From Solirubrobacter pauli (lineage in GTDB: Bacteria; Actinomycetota; Thermoleophilia; Solirubrobacterales; Solirubrobacteraceae): a stretch of DNA of 64,000 bases. The position numbers and the translations under genes were made by a program. Below the pieces are notes generated by a model. The model was given only the letters and a program-made list of their open reading frames with translations, did no database searches and was not told where the DNA came from. This document shows, one piece after another, positions 46,368 to 56,399 of this stretch (the stretch's first letter is position 1; every line of letters begins with the position of its first letter). The DNA lies in the NCBI RefSeq assembly GCF_003633755.1, contig NZ_RBIL01000002.1:744001-808000 (forward strand), read 5' to 3'.

Positions 46368-46817
46368 GCGTGGAGCTCAGCTCGGGTGGCGCGCGGCGGG
46401 CCTTCGTCGCGTCGGGGAGCACACCGTCGGGCGTCGCGTCAAGCGACTCGGTCGCTTCGCGGGCGAGTCGCTTGACCCGCCGCGGCGGGAGCGCTCTTGT
46501 GCGGGTGAGCGGCTGCGCCGGATTGCGCCCGGGCGCGGGCCGCGCGCCCGTCCGTGCCACGCGAGCGTTCAGTTGGACCACCAGAGGTTGACTAAGGCAT
46601 CGCTCGCGTGGTGTGCGCTCTGGGCCCGCGCGGGGCTCGCCGGCCCCAGCCGGCCTGACCAGCCCAGAGCACGCCGGCCGCGGCGGGCCAAGAAGCCCGT
46701 GACCACCGCCCCGCGGCGCCGCCACCGCTCGCGCACGGGGTTCTTGACGCGACGCCCGACGGTGTGCTCCCCGGACGTAGCAGCGCACCGGAGTGCGTCG
46801 CGCGCTGAGCTCCACGC
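46368..46817. repeat. 450-bp concentric imperfect palindrome
   Basis: Three pairs of arms share nearly one centre: 14-bp outer arms (46368-46381 / 46804-46817), perfect 30-bp arms (46414-46443 / 46743-46772) and 11-bp inner arms (46557-46567 / 46601-46611). Their midpoints are 46592.5, 46593 and 46584. Sequence between outer and 30-bp arms is similar in length but diverged, so two inverted copies of a longer unit are likely. A mobile-element relic, a dispersed repeat or a structured RNA are all possible. Confidence 0.7.
46438..46476. other. 13-bp hairpin inside the palindromic region
   Basis: GTCAAGCGACTCG and CGAGTCGCTTGAC form a perfect 13-bp stem with a 13-nt loop, directly joined to the left 30-bp arm. 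It may terminate the kinase transcript. Confidence 0.55.
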
Positions 46818-51753: not shown

Positions 51754-52536
51754 ATGGCCACGACCACACAACGTCCGCTCGCCGTCGTCACCGGCGCGTC
51801 GAGCGGCATCGGATACGAGCTCGCGAAGCAGTTCGCCAACCACGGCTTCGACCTGATCGTCGCGGCGGAGGACGACGCCATCAACCGCGTCGGGACCGAG
51901 CTCGCCGCCGAGGCGGTGCAGGTCGACCTCGCGACCGACGAGGGCGTCGACGAGCTCTACGGGCGGCTCGCCGGCCGCAAGGTCGACGCGATCGCGCTCA
52001 ACGCGGGCATCGGCGCGGGCGGCGCGTTCGCCACCGACACCGACCTGCAGGACGAGCTCAAGCTGATCGACCTCAACGTGCGCTCGACCGTGCACCTGGC
52101 CAAGCACGTCGTCAAGGACATGGTCGCGCGAGACGAGGGGCGGATCCTGTTCACGTCCTCGATCGCCTCGACCATGCCGGGCGCGTTCCAGGCCGTCTAC
52201 AACGCCTCCAAGTCGTTCGTGCAGTCGTTCGCGATCGCGCTGCGCAACGAGCTCAAGGACACCAACGTCAGCGTCACGTCGTTGATGCCGGGGCCGACCG
52301 ACACCGAGTTCTTCGAACGGGCCGACATGCTCGACACGAAGGTCGGCTCGGGGGACAAGGACGACCCGGCGGATGTCGCCAAGGACGGGTTCGAGGCGCT
52401 GATGGCGGGCAAGGAGCGCGTCGAGTCCGCGTCCCTGTCCACGAAGCTGCAAGGCCGCGGCTCGCGCCTGCTGCCCGACAGCGCCAAGGCCGAGCTGCAC
52501 CGCAAGATGGCGGAGCCGGGGTCCGGCGAAGGATGA
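51754..52536 (+). CDS. Short-chain dehydrogenase/reductase
   Basis: 260 aa, classical SDR. TGASSGIG (14-21), NAGIG, catalytic Ser in FTSSIAS and YNASK (Tyr-x3-Lys). The C-terminal tail after about 215 is charged and lacks the usual substrate-binding end. Overlaps the P450 start by 4 nt (ATGA). With the epimerase-like and P450 genes it may form a small modification pathway for a lipid or terpenoid (inference). Confidence 0.9.
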   Translation: MATTTQRPLAVVTGASSGIGYELAKQFANHGFDLIVAAEDDAINRVGTELAAEAVQVDLATDEGVDELYGRLAGRKVDAIALNAGIGAGGAFATDTDLQDELKLIDLNVRSTVHLAKHVVKDMVARDEGRILFTSSIASTMPGAFQAVYNASKSFVQSFAIALRNELKDTNVSVTSLMPGPTDTEFFERADMLDTKVGSGDKDDPADVAKDGFEALMAGKERVESASLSTKLQGRGSRLLPDSAKAELHRKMAEPGSGEG

Positions 52537-53546
52537 CGCTGCCGCCAGGGCCGGAGCTGCCTGCCCTGGCGCAGGCCGTCGCCTACCACCGTGACCCGCT
52601 GGGCGTGCTGCTGCGCGCCCGTGCCCGCTACGGCCCGCGGTTCACCCTCCGCATCACCAAGCCAATCGTGTTCGTGTCCGACGCTTCGCTCATGGCGGAC
52701 GCGAACGCCGGTGCGGCCAGGCGAGCCGTGCTCCCGCTTGCCTCCCACCGCTCGCTGTTCGGCGCCGACGGCGCCGAGCACCGCAGCGAGCGCGCCTGGT
52801 GGGAGCCGCGCTTCCGCGACCTCTCCGAGGACGCGATCGCGGCGATCGCCGAGCGCCACATCGCCGGCTGGCCGCGCGGGCGGCCGTTCCGGCTGCTGGA
52901 GAAGATGCGCGACATCGCGACCGACGTCTTCGGTCGGCTGATCCTCGGCCTCGACGACCCGGACTTCGTCGGCGCGGTGCGGCGGATGCTGCGCACGCCG
53001 GGCAACCCGCCGCTGCCCGTCCCGGCGTCGCTGGATCCCGTCTTCCATTGGCGCGCCGCACCGTTGCGCGCGGTGCTGGAGCGCCACGGGCTGGACGCCG
53101 ACCGGGCGATCGTGGTGGTGGCGGCCGGCCAGGAGCCGCCGGCGATCGCGCTGGCCAACGTCGGCTACGAGTGGGCGCGGCGCGGGGGAGCGATCGACGG
53201 CGCGTTCGTCGACGAGACGCTGCGGCTGCGCCCCTCGGCGTCAGCCGCCCTACGCGAGGTCGACGGAGAGACGCGCGCGCTGTCGTCGCTGCTCGCCCAC
53301 CGCGACCCGGACGCGTTCCCGGACCCGCACGCCTTCCGCCTCGACCGCGACTACGAGCACCCGCTCTACATGCCGTTCGGCGGCGGCGTCCGCCGCTGCG
53401 TGGGGGAGCCGCTGGCCCGCGCCCAGCTGCGCGCGATCCCGCCGCTCCTCCCGCGCCTGAAGGCCGTGCACCCGCGCCCGGAACGCATGGTCGTCCGCGG
53501 CACGGTGCTCGTCCCGCACCGCAGCGCGCTCGTCATCGCAACCTAA
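52533..53546 (+). CDS. Compact cytochrome P450
   Basis: 337 aa, about 60-100 residues shorter than usual. Haem-binding FGGGVRRCVG (282-291, Cys289) and K-helix ETLR (Glu228-Arg231) are intact, and the C-helix HRSER is present. The I-helix reads AGQEPP (198-203), so the conserved acid is followed by Pro instead of Thr, which removes the usual proton-delivery alcohol. Shortening falls between about 150 and 195 (F/G region). Catalytic competence is uncertain but the haem core is complete. The TAA stop lies inside the extra AACCTAAAG copy that precedes the 29-bp palindrome at 53550-53578. Confidence 0.85.
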   Translation: MTLPPGPELPALAQAVAYHRDPLGVLLRARARYGPRFTLRITKPIVFVSDASLMADANAGAARRAVLPLASHRSLFGADGAEHRSERAWWEPRFRDLSEDAIAAIAERHIAGWPRGRPFRLLEKMRDIATDVFGRLILGLDDPDFVGAVRRMLRTPGNPPLPVPASLDPVFHWRAAPLRAVLERHGLDADRAIVVVAAGQEPPAIALANVGYEWARRGGAIDGAFVDETLRLRPSASAALREVDGETRALSSLLAHRDPDAFPDPHAFRLDRDYEHPLYMPFGGGVRRCVGEPLARAQLRAIPPLLPRLKAVHPRPERMVVRGTVLVPHRSALVIAT

Positions 53547-53549
53547 AGC

Positions 53550-53578
53550 AACCTAAAGGGGTCTGACCCCTTTAGGTT
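53550..53578. repeat. 29-bp palindromic element, copy 1 (bidirectional stop and terminator)
   Basis: Arms AACCTAAAGGGGTC and GACCCCTTTAGGTT around one T form a perfect 14-bp stem. An extra partial AACCTAAAG copy lies at 53540-53548. The P450 stop (TAA at 53544-53546) lies in that partial copy and the convergent sulfite-oxidase-like gene stop (TAA on the minus strand, 53574-53572) in the right arm. Confidence 0.85.
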
Positions 53579-54621
53579 GGTCGAGGTACGTCGAGGGTGA
53601 GGCGCGGGCGGGCGTTGTTGACGTAGCCCTTCGGGTTCCAGAGGCCCGCCTCGTCCTCCGGTTGGGTCGCGGCGGACGAGTCCCAGGCGCGGACGATGAG
53701 CTCGTGCTCTCCCGGCGGGAGGTCCAGCGGGAGGCGCCAGTGGCGCCAGGCCCAGGGGCCGAGGTCGTCGAGCAGCTCGGCCTGCGTCCAGGTGGTGCCG
53801 CCGTCGACGGACACGTCCACGCGGGTGACGAAGCGCTCGCCGCCGGCGAACGCGTAGCCGCGGACCTCGGTCGGCGTCGCCGACAGGATGTCCGCGTTCA
53901 AGGCGACGAGCCCGAGGGGGAGGCCGCGGCCCGGGGCGGGCGTGTCGTCCTCCGGAAGCAGCCGGTAGACGACGTCCTGGAAGTAGCCCTTCCACGGCGT
54001 GCTCCGCAGCTCGATCCGGTTGAGCCACTTGACGCTCCGTGCGCCGATGTAGCCCGGCACGACCACGCGCAGCGGCGCGCCGTGCACCGGCTCGAGCGGC
54101 TCGCCGTTCATCGCCCAGGCCAGCAGCACCTCGGGGCGGGTGGCCTTCTCGAGCGGGATCGAGCCGCCGAAGGGCTGCGGCGGCTTGGCCTCCGGGCTCA
54201 GGTCGGCGCCCTCGAAGCCGACGTGGCGGGCGCCCGGGAGCGGCCGGGCGAGGGCGAGCACGTCCGCGAGACGCACGCCGGTCCAGGTGGCCGTGCCGGT
54301 CGCGCCCGGGCCCCAGGGCGCCTCGCCCGGGATGTCGCGGATCGCGATCAGGCCGGCGCGCCGGTTGCCCGCGCACTGGAGCGTGGCGGTCACGGTGTGC
54401 TCGGGGAGCGCCTCGCGCAGCGTCGCGAGCGACAGGTCCAGCGGGCGCTCGAGCTGGCCGTCGACGCGCAGTCGCCAATCCGCCGGCTCGGGCACGTCGC
54501 CGTGGTTGCGCACGTAGAACGCCGACGTGGCCGTGAGCGGCCCGGCCGCCAGCGCGTCGCGCTCGGTCTCCGCGTTGTACGGGTCGGTCCCGTGGACGAT
54601 CACGTCGCGTTTGCCGTGCAT
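53572..54621 (-). CDS. Sulfite oxidase-like molybdopterin enzyme
   Basis: 349 aa. Mo-cofactor domain with ligand Cys83 in TATLQCAGNRR, WTGVRLADVL and VVVPGYIGARSVKWL, followed by the Mo-co dimerisation domain (VDVSVDGGTTWTQAELL, HEL...VRAWDSS). No signal peptide or haem domain, so it is a cytoplasmic or separately targeted member such as plant-type SO or a sulfoxide reductase catalytic subunit. ATG 54621 is 8 nt after TAGGCT on the minus strand, a leaderless arrangement. The stop is supplied by the palindromic element. Divergent from the VOC gene with less than 20 bp between starts. Confidence 0.88.
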   Translation of the reverse strand: MHGKRDVIVHGTDPYNAETERDALAAGPLTATSAFYVRNHGDVPEPADWRLRVDGQLERPLDLSLATLREALPEHTVTATLQCAGNRRAGLIAIRDIPGEAPWGPGATGTATWTGVRLADVLALARPLPGARHVGFEGADLSPEAKPPQPFGGSIPLEKATRPEVLLAWAMNGEPLEPVHGAPLRVVVPGYIGARSVKWLNRIELRSTPWKGYFQDVVYRLLPEDDTPAPGRGLPLGLVALNADILSATPTEVRGYAFAGGERFVTRVDVSVDGGTTWTQAELLDDLGPWAWRHWRLPLDLPPGEHELIVRAWDSSAATQPEDEAGLWNPKGYVNNARPRLTLDVPRPT

Positions 54622-54629
54622 CGGCTGAA

Positions 54630-54635
54630 AGCCTA
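54630..54635 (-). promoter_or_regulatory. Putative -10 (TAGGCT), leaderless start
   Basis: TAGGCT on the minus strand ends 8 nt before the ATG of the sulfite oxidase-like gene. It overlaps the start region of the divergent VOC gene. Confidence 0.5.
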
Positions 54636-54640
54636 TGCGC

Positions 54641-55039
54641 ATGATCCGGCTCGACCACTGCGTCATCCACATCTCCGACTGGGAGACCTCGAACGCCTTC
54701 TACCGCGACGTCCTCGGCGCGGAGGTCGTGGAAGGTGGCTCCGGCCGTGTCGCGTACCGGTTCGGCGACACGCAGCTGAACGTGCACGGACCGGGCGTGG
54801 ACGTCGGCACGCTCGTCGCCCGGCTGCCGGTGATGCCGGGCAACAGCGACCTCTGCTTCGTCTGGGACGGCGCGCCGGAGGACGCCGTCGCCCACCTCGA
54901 GCGTCACGGCGTGGCCATCGAGGACGGCCCGGTCACCCGCCACGGCGCCCGCGGCGAGGGCACGAGCGTCTACTTCCGCGACCCCGACGGCTCGCTGCTG
55001 GAGCTCATCTCGTACATAAAGGAACCTAAAGGGGTCTGA
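54641..55039 (+). CDS. VOC-family (glyoxalase/dioxygenase fold) protein ending in a repeat element
   Basis: 132 aa. VOC fold: MIRLDHCVIHISDWETSNAF, then VAYRFGDTQLNVHGPG, LCFVWDGAPEDAV and SVYFRDPDGSLLELISY. Metal ligands His6 and the Glu in LLELI fit, the others are less clear. The last residues (KEPKGV) and the TGA stop are encoded by the 29-bp palindrome at 55023-55051, so its C-terminus was remodelled by the element. ATG 54635 is an alternative start. Function unknown; extradiol-type or lyase activity is possible. Confidence 0.8.
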   Translation: MIRLDHCVIHISDWETSNAFYRDVLGAEVVEGGSGRVAYRFGDTQLNVHGPGVDVGTLVARLPVMPGNSDLCFVWDGAPEDAVAHLERHGVAIEDGPVTRHGARGEGTSVYFRDPDGSLLELISYIKEPKGV

Positions 55040-55051
55040 CCCCTTTAGGTT
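55023..55051. repeat. 29-bp palindromic element, copy 2
   Basis: Identical to copy 1 (53550-53578). It supplies the VOC stop codon (TGA 55037-55039) and, through TAGGTT (55046-55051), a -10-like hexamer 7 nt before GTG 55059 of the cyclase gene. Confidence 0.85.
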
Positions 55052-55058
55052 GGCGCCC

Positions 55059-56399
55059 GTGCCCGTCCGCATCGTCACCGCGCTGGCGCTGCCGATCGCG
55101 TTGATCGTGCTGCTCCGCGCCGCCCCGTCGGTGGACGCGCGCTGGGAGGACCAGCCCGCGCACTTCTGGATCGTGCTGGTCGCGGGCGTGGTGAACGCGG
55201 GGCTCGCGATCGCGGTCAGCGAGGCCGGGCGGCGCCGCAAGGATGCGCGGCTGCTGCTGATCGGGCTCGCGTTCCTGGCCAGCGCCGGCTTCCTCGGGCT
55301 GCACGCGCTGGCGACGCCCGGGGTGCTGCTGGAGAAGGGCAACGCGGGGTTCGTGCTGGCGACGCCGGTGGGGCTCGTGGTCGCGGGGCTGCTGGCGGCG
55401 GCCAGCGCGGTCGAGTACCCGCTGCGCACGGCGCTGGCGATCGTCCGGCACGCGCGGGCGCTCCTCGCCGCGGTGCTGGGGCTGCTGGCGCTGTGGGCGC
55501 TGCTGTCGCTCGCGGACCTGCCCCCGCTGCGGTCCACGGTCACGCCCGAGGACGCGGAGGCTGCGCTCGGGGTGTTCGCGCTGCTCGGCGTGGCCAGCTA
55601 CGGATTCGCGGCGGTGCAGTACTTCCGGATCGCGACGCGCCGCGGCTCCGGGCTGGCGTTCGCGATCGCGTTCGCGTTCGCGCTGCTGGCCGAGGCACTC
55701 GTGATCGTCCTGCTCTCGCTGACCACGAGCTGGCAGCTCAGCTGGTGGGAGTGGCACCTGCTGATGGCGATCAGCTTCTTCACGATCGCCGCCGCGGCGC
55801 AGCGCGAGTGGTTCGAGGAGCGCTTCAGCGCGCTCTACCTCGACGAGACGCTCGCCGGACACCGCGAGGTCACCGTCCTGTTCGCGGACCTGAGCGGCTT
55901 CACGCCGTTCTCCGAGGCCAACGGCCCGGAAGCCGTCCACGCGATGCTGGTCGCCTACTTCGGCGAGCTCGCCCCGATGCTCGTCGACGACTTCGACGGC
56001 GAGGTCCAGGACTTCGTCGGCGACCAGATCTTCGCGATCTTCAACAAGCGCGGCGACCACCCGGACCACGCGTTGCGCGGCGCCCGCGCCGCGCTGGAGC
56101 TGCAACGCCGCGCCGAGGCGATCCGGCGGCCCGGCTGGCCGCGCTTCCGCTGCGGCGTGAACACCGGCCCGGTGCTCGCCGGCGTCGTCGGCGACCGCGG
56201 GCACCGGATCCACGGCGTCTTCGGCGACACCGTCAACCTGGGCTCACGGCTAGAGGGGCAGGCGCGCCCGGGCGAGGTCGTGATCGCCGGGACGACCCGG
56301 GACCACCTCCCGGACGCGGCGGACGTCGAGCCGCTGCCGCCGCTCGCGATCAAGGGCAAGGCCGAGCCGGTGCAGGCGTTCATCCTCCGCGCGCTCTAG
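55059..56399 (+). CDS. Membrane-bound class III adenylate/guanylate cyclase
   Basis: 446 aa. About eight N-terminal membrane helices (residues 1-245) precede a class III cyclase domain: first metal Asp in VLFADLSGFTPF (about 277), second in VQDFVGDQIFAIF (about 321), and the adenine/transition-state segment VFGDTVNLGSRLEGQ with Asn and Arg (about 391-405). All catalytic residues are in place. GTG 55059 is preceded by TAGGTT; a TTG lies at 55050. It overlaps the convergent ChaB gene by 20 bp. Makes cAMP (or cGMP) in response to a membrane signal; no sensor is recognisable. Confidence 0.88.
   Translation: MPVRIVTALALPIALIVLLRAAPSVDARWEDQPAHFWIVLVAGVVNAGLAIAVSEAGRRRKDARLLLIGLAFLASAGFLGLHALATPGVLLEKGNAGFVLATPVGLVVAGLLAAASAVEYPLRTALAIVRHARALLAAVLGLLALWALLSLADLPPLRSTVTPEDAEAALGVFALLGVASYGFAAVQYFRIATRRGSGLAFAIAFAFALLAEALVIVLLSLTTSWQLSWWEWHLLMAISFFTIAAAAQREWFEERFSALYLDETLAGHREVTVLFADLSGFTPFSEANGPEAVHAMLVAYFGELAPMLVDDFDGEVQDFVGDQIFAIFNKRGDHPDHALRGARAALELQRRAEAIRRPGWPRFRCGVNTGPVLAGVVGDRGHRIHGVFGDTVNLGSRLEGQARPGEVVIAGTTRDHLPDAADVEPLPPLAIKGKAEPVQAFILRAL

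What the first reader, a model, noticed from the sequence alone, without database searches (positions are those of the whole stretch)
53540..55051. Mobile-looking 29-bp palindrome that provides stop codons and a -10 element
Two identical copies of AACCTAAAGGGGTC-T-GACCCCTTTAGGTT lie 1.5 kb apart. At copy 1 the two convergent genes end in it: the sulfite-oxidase-like stop is in the right arm, and the P450 stop is in a partial extra repeat of the left arm. In copy 2 the element encodes the last residues and stop of the VOC gene and gives a TAGGTT 7 nt before the cyclase GTG. The core GGGGTC...GACCCC resembles REP-like sequences associated with Y1 (RAYT) transposases, from memory.
Basis: partly seen in the sequence, partly recalled or inferred. 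Interest (0 to 1): 0.65.

Follow-up and report, generated by a model that had tools for sequence, protein, structure and literature searches.

The report
Transposase-linked mobile palindromes at gene boundaries
The two identical 29-base palindromes are copies of a small mobile DNA family, apparently spread by single-strand-cutting (Y1/HUH) enzymes in Solirubrobacter; copies sit in the tiny gaps between genes and often supply the stop codon of one gene and, apparently, the promoter box of the next.

Summary
Observation confirmed exactly. The window's genome (Solirubrobacter, 7.1 Mb) holds 19 exact GGGGTC-W-GACCCC cores and several decayed ones (reversed control 0). Congeners carry a Y1/HUH transposase gene flanked on both sides by this element. 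The window's genome has no such gene: its single Y1 gene sits at the same locus but is flanked by a different palindrome, TTAAACGTCC-A-GGACGTTTAA, with its own dispersed copies. Such palindromes occur in many phyla and match the GGGGWSAS repeats flanking 'TIRYT' Y1 transposases (Di Nocera 2013), not GTAG-tagged REPs. Mobility is supported by orthologous sites without the element, including copy 2. At other sites congeners hold a palindrome with a different core. In the window's genome 52 of 71 genes running into an element end inside it, 30 at the TAA of its inner arm. Start codons cluster 13-16 nt past the core (11 of 30 outgoing genes, p about 4e-5), placing the arm's TANNNT 6-7 nt upstream, as in leaderless actinobacterial promoters; element-free cyclase orthologues have TATCGT or TATTGT there. 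Mobility and Y1 association are well supported by comparison; promoter function and in-place core exchange are inferred.

The parts
53540..53549 (+). extra upstream half-repeat AACCTAAAGC of copy 1; holds the P450 stop TAA (53544-53546)
   Evidence: an upstream TAAAG at this spacing recurs in many genus copies
53550..53578 (.). copy 1, perfect palindrome AACCTAAAGGGGTC-T-GACCCCTTTAGGTT; right arm holds the stop of the minus-strand sulfite-oxidase-like gene (53574-53572)
55016..55022 (+). extra upstream half-repeat ATAAAGG of copy 2, directly after the VOC codon TAC where the G147 orthologue has its stop TGA
55023..55051 (.). copy 2, identical palindrome; encodes the last VOC residues and stop TGA (55037-55039)
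   Evidence: absent at the orthologous site in G147, present in G185
55046..55051 (+). TAGGTT, candidate -10 (TANNNT) 7 nt before the cyclase GTG at 55059-55061
   Evidence: promoter activity not tested
52533..53546 (+). P450-like gene ending in copy 1
53572..54672 (-). sulfite-oxidase-like molybdopterin gene ending in copy 1
54635..55039 (+). VOC (glyoxalase) gene ending in copy 2
55059..56399 (+). guanylate cyclase-type gene starting 7 nt after copy 2

Best explanation
The two palindromes are non-autonomous copies of a short hairpin element spread by Y1/HUH single-strand transposases of the RAYT/TIRYT kind. Inferred mechanism: the element folds as a hairpin on single-stranded DNA (for instance on the lagging-strand template), the cognate enzyme recognises the core GGGGTC-W-GACCCC and cuts near the conserved TAAAG foot, and the piece is copied or moved to a new site. 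Each enzyme type has its own core inside a common TAAA...TTTA frame. Copies persist mainly at 3' ends of genes, where the arms give stop codons in most frames, and just upstream of start codons, where the right arm TANNTT stands in the position of a leaderless -10 box. In the window, copy 2 does both: it ends the VOC gene and puts TAGGTT 7 nt before the cyclase start. Shown by comparison: the dispersed family, presence/absence between species, flanking of Y1 genes, stop and start placement. Inferred: the chemistry, and promoter use.
For: Copies: 19 exact cores, control 0. Cognate gene: Y1 genes in G117/G182 and G185 flanked on both sides by this element. Abundance follows the gene for two other cores: CGTCC/GGCCC cores 40 and 35 in the two genomes with such Y1 genes, 0 in five others; GAGGGAC 41-43 in G117, G182 and G185 and 17 in G147, which have such genes, 7 in G000 and 0 in G183 and G184, in which none was seen. 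The congener without any Y1 gene (G183) has 1 GGGGTC copy. Other phyla: Y1 genes flanked by GGGGTC or GGGGAC palindromes in Planctomycetota, Olsenella, Acidimicrobiales, Nomurabacteria, Bacteroidaceae and Gammaproteobacteria records. Orthologous sites: copy 2 absent in G147, where VOC ends TAC-TGA; s1 empty in three congeners; s10 and s18 empty in others. Stops: 52 of 71 genes end inside an element; 30 of the 42 that reach the inner arm open stop at its TAA (p 5e-7 against one third). Starts: 11 of 30 outgoing genes in the window's genome have an in-frame ATG/GTG 13-16 nt past the core, p 3.6e-5. Of sites with both sides assigned, 49 are convergent or co-directional, 2 divergent.
Against: The window's genome lacks a GGGGTC-type Y1 gene (one Y1 gene, CGTCC type) yet has more GGGGTC copies (19) than the genomes that have the gene (10 each), so for this core abundance does not follow the gene. 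No GT[AG]G foot, and the copies flanking a Y1 gene are often direct rather than inverted by their central base. The Y1 proteins score below the NCBIfam RAYT cut-off (60.9 and 66.3 against 80). No transposition was observed; polarity of gain and loss was not resolved on a robust species tree. The start-codon enrichment is not significant in G147 alone (3 of 14, p 0.19), and the any-frame ATG test is modest (p 0.018). The stop-at-TAA excess can come from selection as well as from targeting.
Confidence: 0.83

Rival explanations
1. Ancestral bidirectional intrinsic terminators: hairpins that terminate both convergent genes, conserved by function and not mobile.
For: Strong hairpin; many sites are at gene 3' ends, 22 of 51 convergent; arms end in a short TTT.
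Against: Orthologous sites empty in close relatives; near-identical sequence between unrelated genes; flank Y1 genes; no long T run; copies directly upstream of start codons.
Confidence: 0.07
2. Operator sites of a dispersed transcription regulator that recognises GGGGTCTGACCCC.
For: Perfect palindrome, fixed core, some copies next to start codons.
Against: About half of the arms face gene ends; orthologous sites carry quite different cores; flanking genes are functionally unrelated; the same palindromes bracket Y1 genes in other phyla.
Confidence: 0.03
3. Insertion is ordinary RAYT-type spread, and the stop and -10 placements are only what selection leaves: AT-rich arms are harmless there. 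No promoter function.
For: Stop supply by GTAG REPs is known (PMC3733652); TANNNT is short and common; the enrichment rests on 11 genes.
Against: Sharp spacing peak at 14-15 nt; at the cyclase the element replaces a TANNNT conserved in element-free orthologues; at s5 and s6b the spacing is kept while the core differs.
Confidence: 0.4

Closest known systems
TIRYT / TIRtron repeats (Di Nocera et al. 2013, PMC3733652); Quentin et al. 2018 (PMC6006769) suggest these are mostly TnpAY1 subclass 2.1
   Same: Y1/HUH genes flanked by repeats with the motif GGGGWSAS, which GGGGTCAG and GGGGACAG fit; some such repeats form moderately abundant dispersed families, single, dimeric or clustered.
   Different: Here the flanking repeats are themselves perfect hairpins in a TAAA...TTTA frame, with several cores in one genus; Quentin et al. 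found no REP-like sequences near subclass 2.1 genes.
GTAG REPs and RAYT/TnpAREP (E. coli, Pseudomonas, Stenotrophomonas)
   Same: Y1/HUH gene flanked by its own palindrome; dispersed copies mainly downstream of genes; stop codons supplied by the repeat; each enzyme with its own repeat; mosaic clusters.
   Different: No GT[AG]G foot (TAAAG instead), often direct rather than inverted flanking copies, low copy number (tens per core), and start-codon-proximal placement.
IS200/IS605 ends (IS608, ISDra2)
   Same: Same enzyme superfamily (PF01797); hairpin with a short guide-like tetranucleotide at its 5' foot.
   Different: No tnpB seen beside the gene, no multiple full-length element copies; cleavage site unknown.

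Membership tests
RAYT-associated REP (GTAG type) | GT[AG]G tetranucleotide at the 5' foot of the hairpin | tested here: not met
   the foot is mostly CCTAAAG or a variant in 33 aligned genus copies
RAYT-associated REP (GTAG type) | Y1 gene flanked by two copies in inverted orientation | tested here: inconclusive
   flanked on both sides, but by central base direct in G000 and G117, inverted in L206, L217 and L290
RAYT / TnpAREP enzyme (Y1, class 2) | HUH motif and Y---NP motif, PF01797 domain | tested here: met
   NH[MVI]H and Y-[IL]-x-x-NP in the printed proteins; PF01797 39 and 36.9 bits over cut-off 23; NCBIfam NF047646 is the only hit but below its curated cut-off
TIRYT / TIRtron | flanking repeats with GGGGWSAS | tested here: met
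   GGGGTCAG / GGGGACAG flank Y1 genes in several phyla; motif as given in PMC3733652
TIRYT / TIRtron | dispersed copies of the flanking repeat in the genome | tested here: met
   10 to 43 copies in congeners that carry a Y1 gene flanked by that core
TnpAY1 subclass 2.1 | C-terminal HTH-like domain | tested here: not met
   the G117 and G000 proteins show only PF01797 at E<=0.001; longer ones such as L207 and L187 were not scanned
Mobile element | orthologous empty sites | tested here: met
   copy 2 and sites s1, s10, s18
Mobile element | transposition or cleavage activity | not testable with these tools
   needs experiments

The most novel reading that the evidence does not exclude
The elements are portable gene-boundary modules: about 30-40 nt that end one gene in frame and start the next from a leaderless -10, and whose hairpin core is exchanged in place by whichever Y1 enzyme the lineage currently carries (core replacement at occupied sites, perhaps by insertion of one palindrome into the core of another), so that a palindrome persists at a site while its core turns over.
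Probability: 0.22. Interest if true: 0.8.

Novelty: new variant of a known kind. Interest (0 to 1): 0.6.

Why it matters
How REP-like palindromes spread, and whether they do anything for the host, has stayed open. This genus offers several palindrome cores, each flanking its own group of Y1 enzymes, with filled, empty and core-swapped versions of the same site in close relatives, which makes enzyme-repeat specificity and in-place exchange directly testable. If the -10 role is real, these repeats move or replace promoters of leaderless genes in compact high-GC actinobacterial genomes, an effect not found in the REP papers read here.

Tried and rejected
Rfam: no match in the window. Literature search for the literal 13-mers: no paper; for Solirubrobacter with REP: none. 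Own-genome Y1 gene as the present source of the GGGGTC copies: its flanking palindrome is a different one, so rejected as the cognate. PDB sequence search with the G185 Y1: no match. Tree of 53 Y1 cores: the GGGGTC label is scattered (10 changes, at least 8 forced), so the core does not mark one clade; the genomes were chosen for carrying the 19-mer, which biases this. A first start-codon test that demanded a frame closed between core and start was too strict, because the arm itself is often open in that frame; it gave 2 of 6 (p 0.07) and was replaced by the in-frame test; the choice of 13-16 nt came from looking at the data, so the p-value is optimistic. Genus tree from the cyclase alone is too weakly resolved to polarise gains and losses.

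Full report
Observation. The 29-nt palindrome is present twice without mismatch at 53550-53578 and 55023-55051, with no chance expectation. Both copies have a further TAAAG upstream (53544-53548 and 55017-55021), a recurrent feature of the family. As single-stranded DNA both fold into a long hairpin.

Genome census. The window lies in a 7.1 Mb genome. Its congeners include Solirubrobacter phytolaccae and Solirubrobacter sp. CPCC 204708: loci L028 and L068, fetched with record titles, fall in genomes G152 and G164, whose Y1 gene coordinates equal those of congener G147 and correspond to those of G182. The genome has 19 exact GGGGTC-W-GACCCC cores, reversed-pattern control 0, and a few decayed ones. 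In 151 genomes of the order, 19 hold the core, most once or twice; G005 holds 88.

Link to Y1/HUH transposases. The window's genome has one Y1_Tnp gene. It sits between two direct copies of another palindrome, TTAAACGTCC-A-GGACGTTTAAGTT. In congeners G117/G182 and G185 a Y1 gene at the same locus, between a sensor histidine kinase and a glycerate kinase, is flanked on both sides by the window's own element; the G185 gene ends in the element, reading ...PKGV-stop in the DNA, as the VOC gene does. In G147 the gene at this locus has the core GGCCC. Other Y1 genes in the genus carry GAGGGAC palindromes. On a tree the genus' Y1 proteins group by core. Core abundance follows the gene for CGTCC/GGCCC (40 and 35 against 0 in five genomes) and GAGGGAC (43, 43, 41 and 17 against 7, 0 and 0). 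For GGGGTC it does not: 10 each with the gene, 19 in G000 and G147 and 28 in G184 without an exact one, 1 in G183 which has no Y1 gene at all. The likeliest reading is that G000 lost or replaced its GGGGTC enzyme and that its copies are relics; mobilisation by another enzyme is not excluded. Of 31 genomes picked because they hold the 19-mer, 28 have a Y1 gene, and in about ten of them the gene is flanked by GGGGTC or GGGGAC palindromes, in records labelled Planctomycetota, Olsenella, Acidimicrobiales, Nomurabacteria, Bacteroidaceae, Clostridiales and Gammaproteobacteria among others.

Mobility. Copy 2 is absent in G147, where the VOC gene ends TAC-TGA, and present in G185. Copy 1 is decayed in G117/G182, present beside a different upstream gene in G185, and replaced in G147 by TTAAAGGCCC-T-GGGCCTTTAA, the core that flanks G147's own Y1 gene. 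Of 15 further sites aligned, s1 is empty in G117, G185 and G184; s10 in G147 and G185; s18 in G147. At s3, s5, s6b, s8, s13, s14 and s17 a congener has an element with another core at the same place. At s14 the arms are identical (AACCTAAAG...CTTTAGGTT) and only GGGGTC/GACCCC versus GGGGAC/GTCCCC differs. Some elements look nested, a GGGGTC palindrome inside the arms of an older one (s3 in G000, s10 in G184). Recurrent insertion into old elements, compensatory change, and enzymatic replacement of the hairpin could each give this pattern. G184's Y1 gene is flanked by GGGGTC-A-GGCCCC, with a T-G wobble, which looks like a step between two cores.

Stops and starts. A codon-usage model trained on six window genes assigned the flanking genes. 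In the window's genome 71 genes run into an element; 52 end inside it, and 30 of the 42 that reach the inner arm open stop at its TAA. That repeats can give stop codons is known for GTAG REPs (PMC3733652). Of 51 sites with both sides assigned, 22 are convergent, 27 co-directional and 2 divergent. Of 30 arms with an outgoing gene, 11 have an in-frame ATG or GTG 13-16 nt past the core, nine of them at 14-15 (background 9% per four-base window, p 3.6e-5; the interval was chosen after seeing the data, so the true significance is lower). This puts the arm's TANNTT 6-7 nt before the start codon. In M. tuberculosis the TANNNT -10 motif is centred 7-12 nt upstream of transcription starts and no -35 motif was found (PMC3898074). 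Many of the genes so started look real by their N-termini: response regulator, flavoprotein, luciferase-like enzyme, P450, glycerate kinase, Tat-signal protein (names by eye, not searched). Cyclase orthologues without the element have TATCGT-N6-GTG (G117) or TATTGT-N6-GTG (G147); the two with the element have TAGGTT-N7-GTG. At s5 the spacing is 7 nt both for the GGGGTC element of G000 and for the CGTCC element of G147. At s6b in G147 one palindrome stands 6 nt from start codons on both sides of a divergent pair. Transcription itself was not tested, and G147 alone does not show a significant excess (3 of 14).

Comparison with the known. The closest described systems are the TIRYT genes of Di Nocera et al., flanked by repeats with GGGGWSAS, which Quentin et al. 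mostly place in TnpAY1 subclass 2.1 and for which they found no REPs. The classic GTAG foot is absent. The proteins are Y1/HUH enzymes by PF01797, and RAYT-like but below NCBI's RAYT cut-off. Hence: a new variant of a known kind, in Actinobacteria, with several cores, orthologous core turnover and start-codon-proximal placement as the unusual parts.

Noticed in passing
L008:1500-1560, L010:1500-1550, L017:1440-1540, L018:1440-1513, L019:1500-1560: A third palindrome, GCGACA-NN-TGTCGC, recurs in composites together with GGGGTC and GAGGGAC elements at near-fixed spacing, like a mosaic repeat.
   Followed up: partly
L333, L412, L429, L430, L435 (near the middle): Elements whose frame stays open inside apparent genes; in the read-through frame they would encode short peptides such as ELKRPGRLS (CGTCC core) or NLKGSDPFR (GGGGTC core).
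   Followed up: no
L274:1990-2060 (G117; likewise G182, L275): The GGGGTC-type Y1 gene appears to have changed reading frame after the catalytic part, ending ...SLHNLKGSDPFRLLG inside the element; the G185 gene (L321) looks intact there.
   Followed up: partly
G000, G147, G117, G182, G185: histidine kinase - Y1 - glycerate kinase locus (L020, L407, L274, L275, L321): One locus holds Y1 genes with three different cores in five congeners, 53-75% identical to the G000 protein; looks like allele replacement or fast co-evolution.
   Followed up: partly
L269:3545-4395 (G147): Where copy 2 is absent, G147 has about 860 nt between VOC and cyclase that are absent from the window.
   Followed up: no
window 52533-53546: The P450 gene is short (337 aa) and only its C-terminal heme region matches PF00067; the region is missing in G147 and G185.
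   Followed up: no
window 46431-46483: Another inverted repeat, 25-nt arms 84% complementary with 3 nt between.
   Followed up: no
L170-L178 (IMG/VR contigs): Nine stretches from five viral-collection contigs carry the 19-mer, one contig several times; could be proviral or misassigned bacterial DNA.
   Followed up: no
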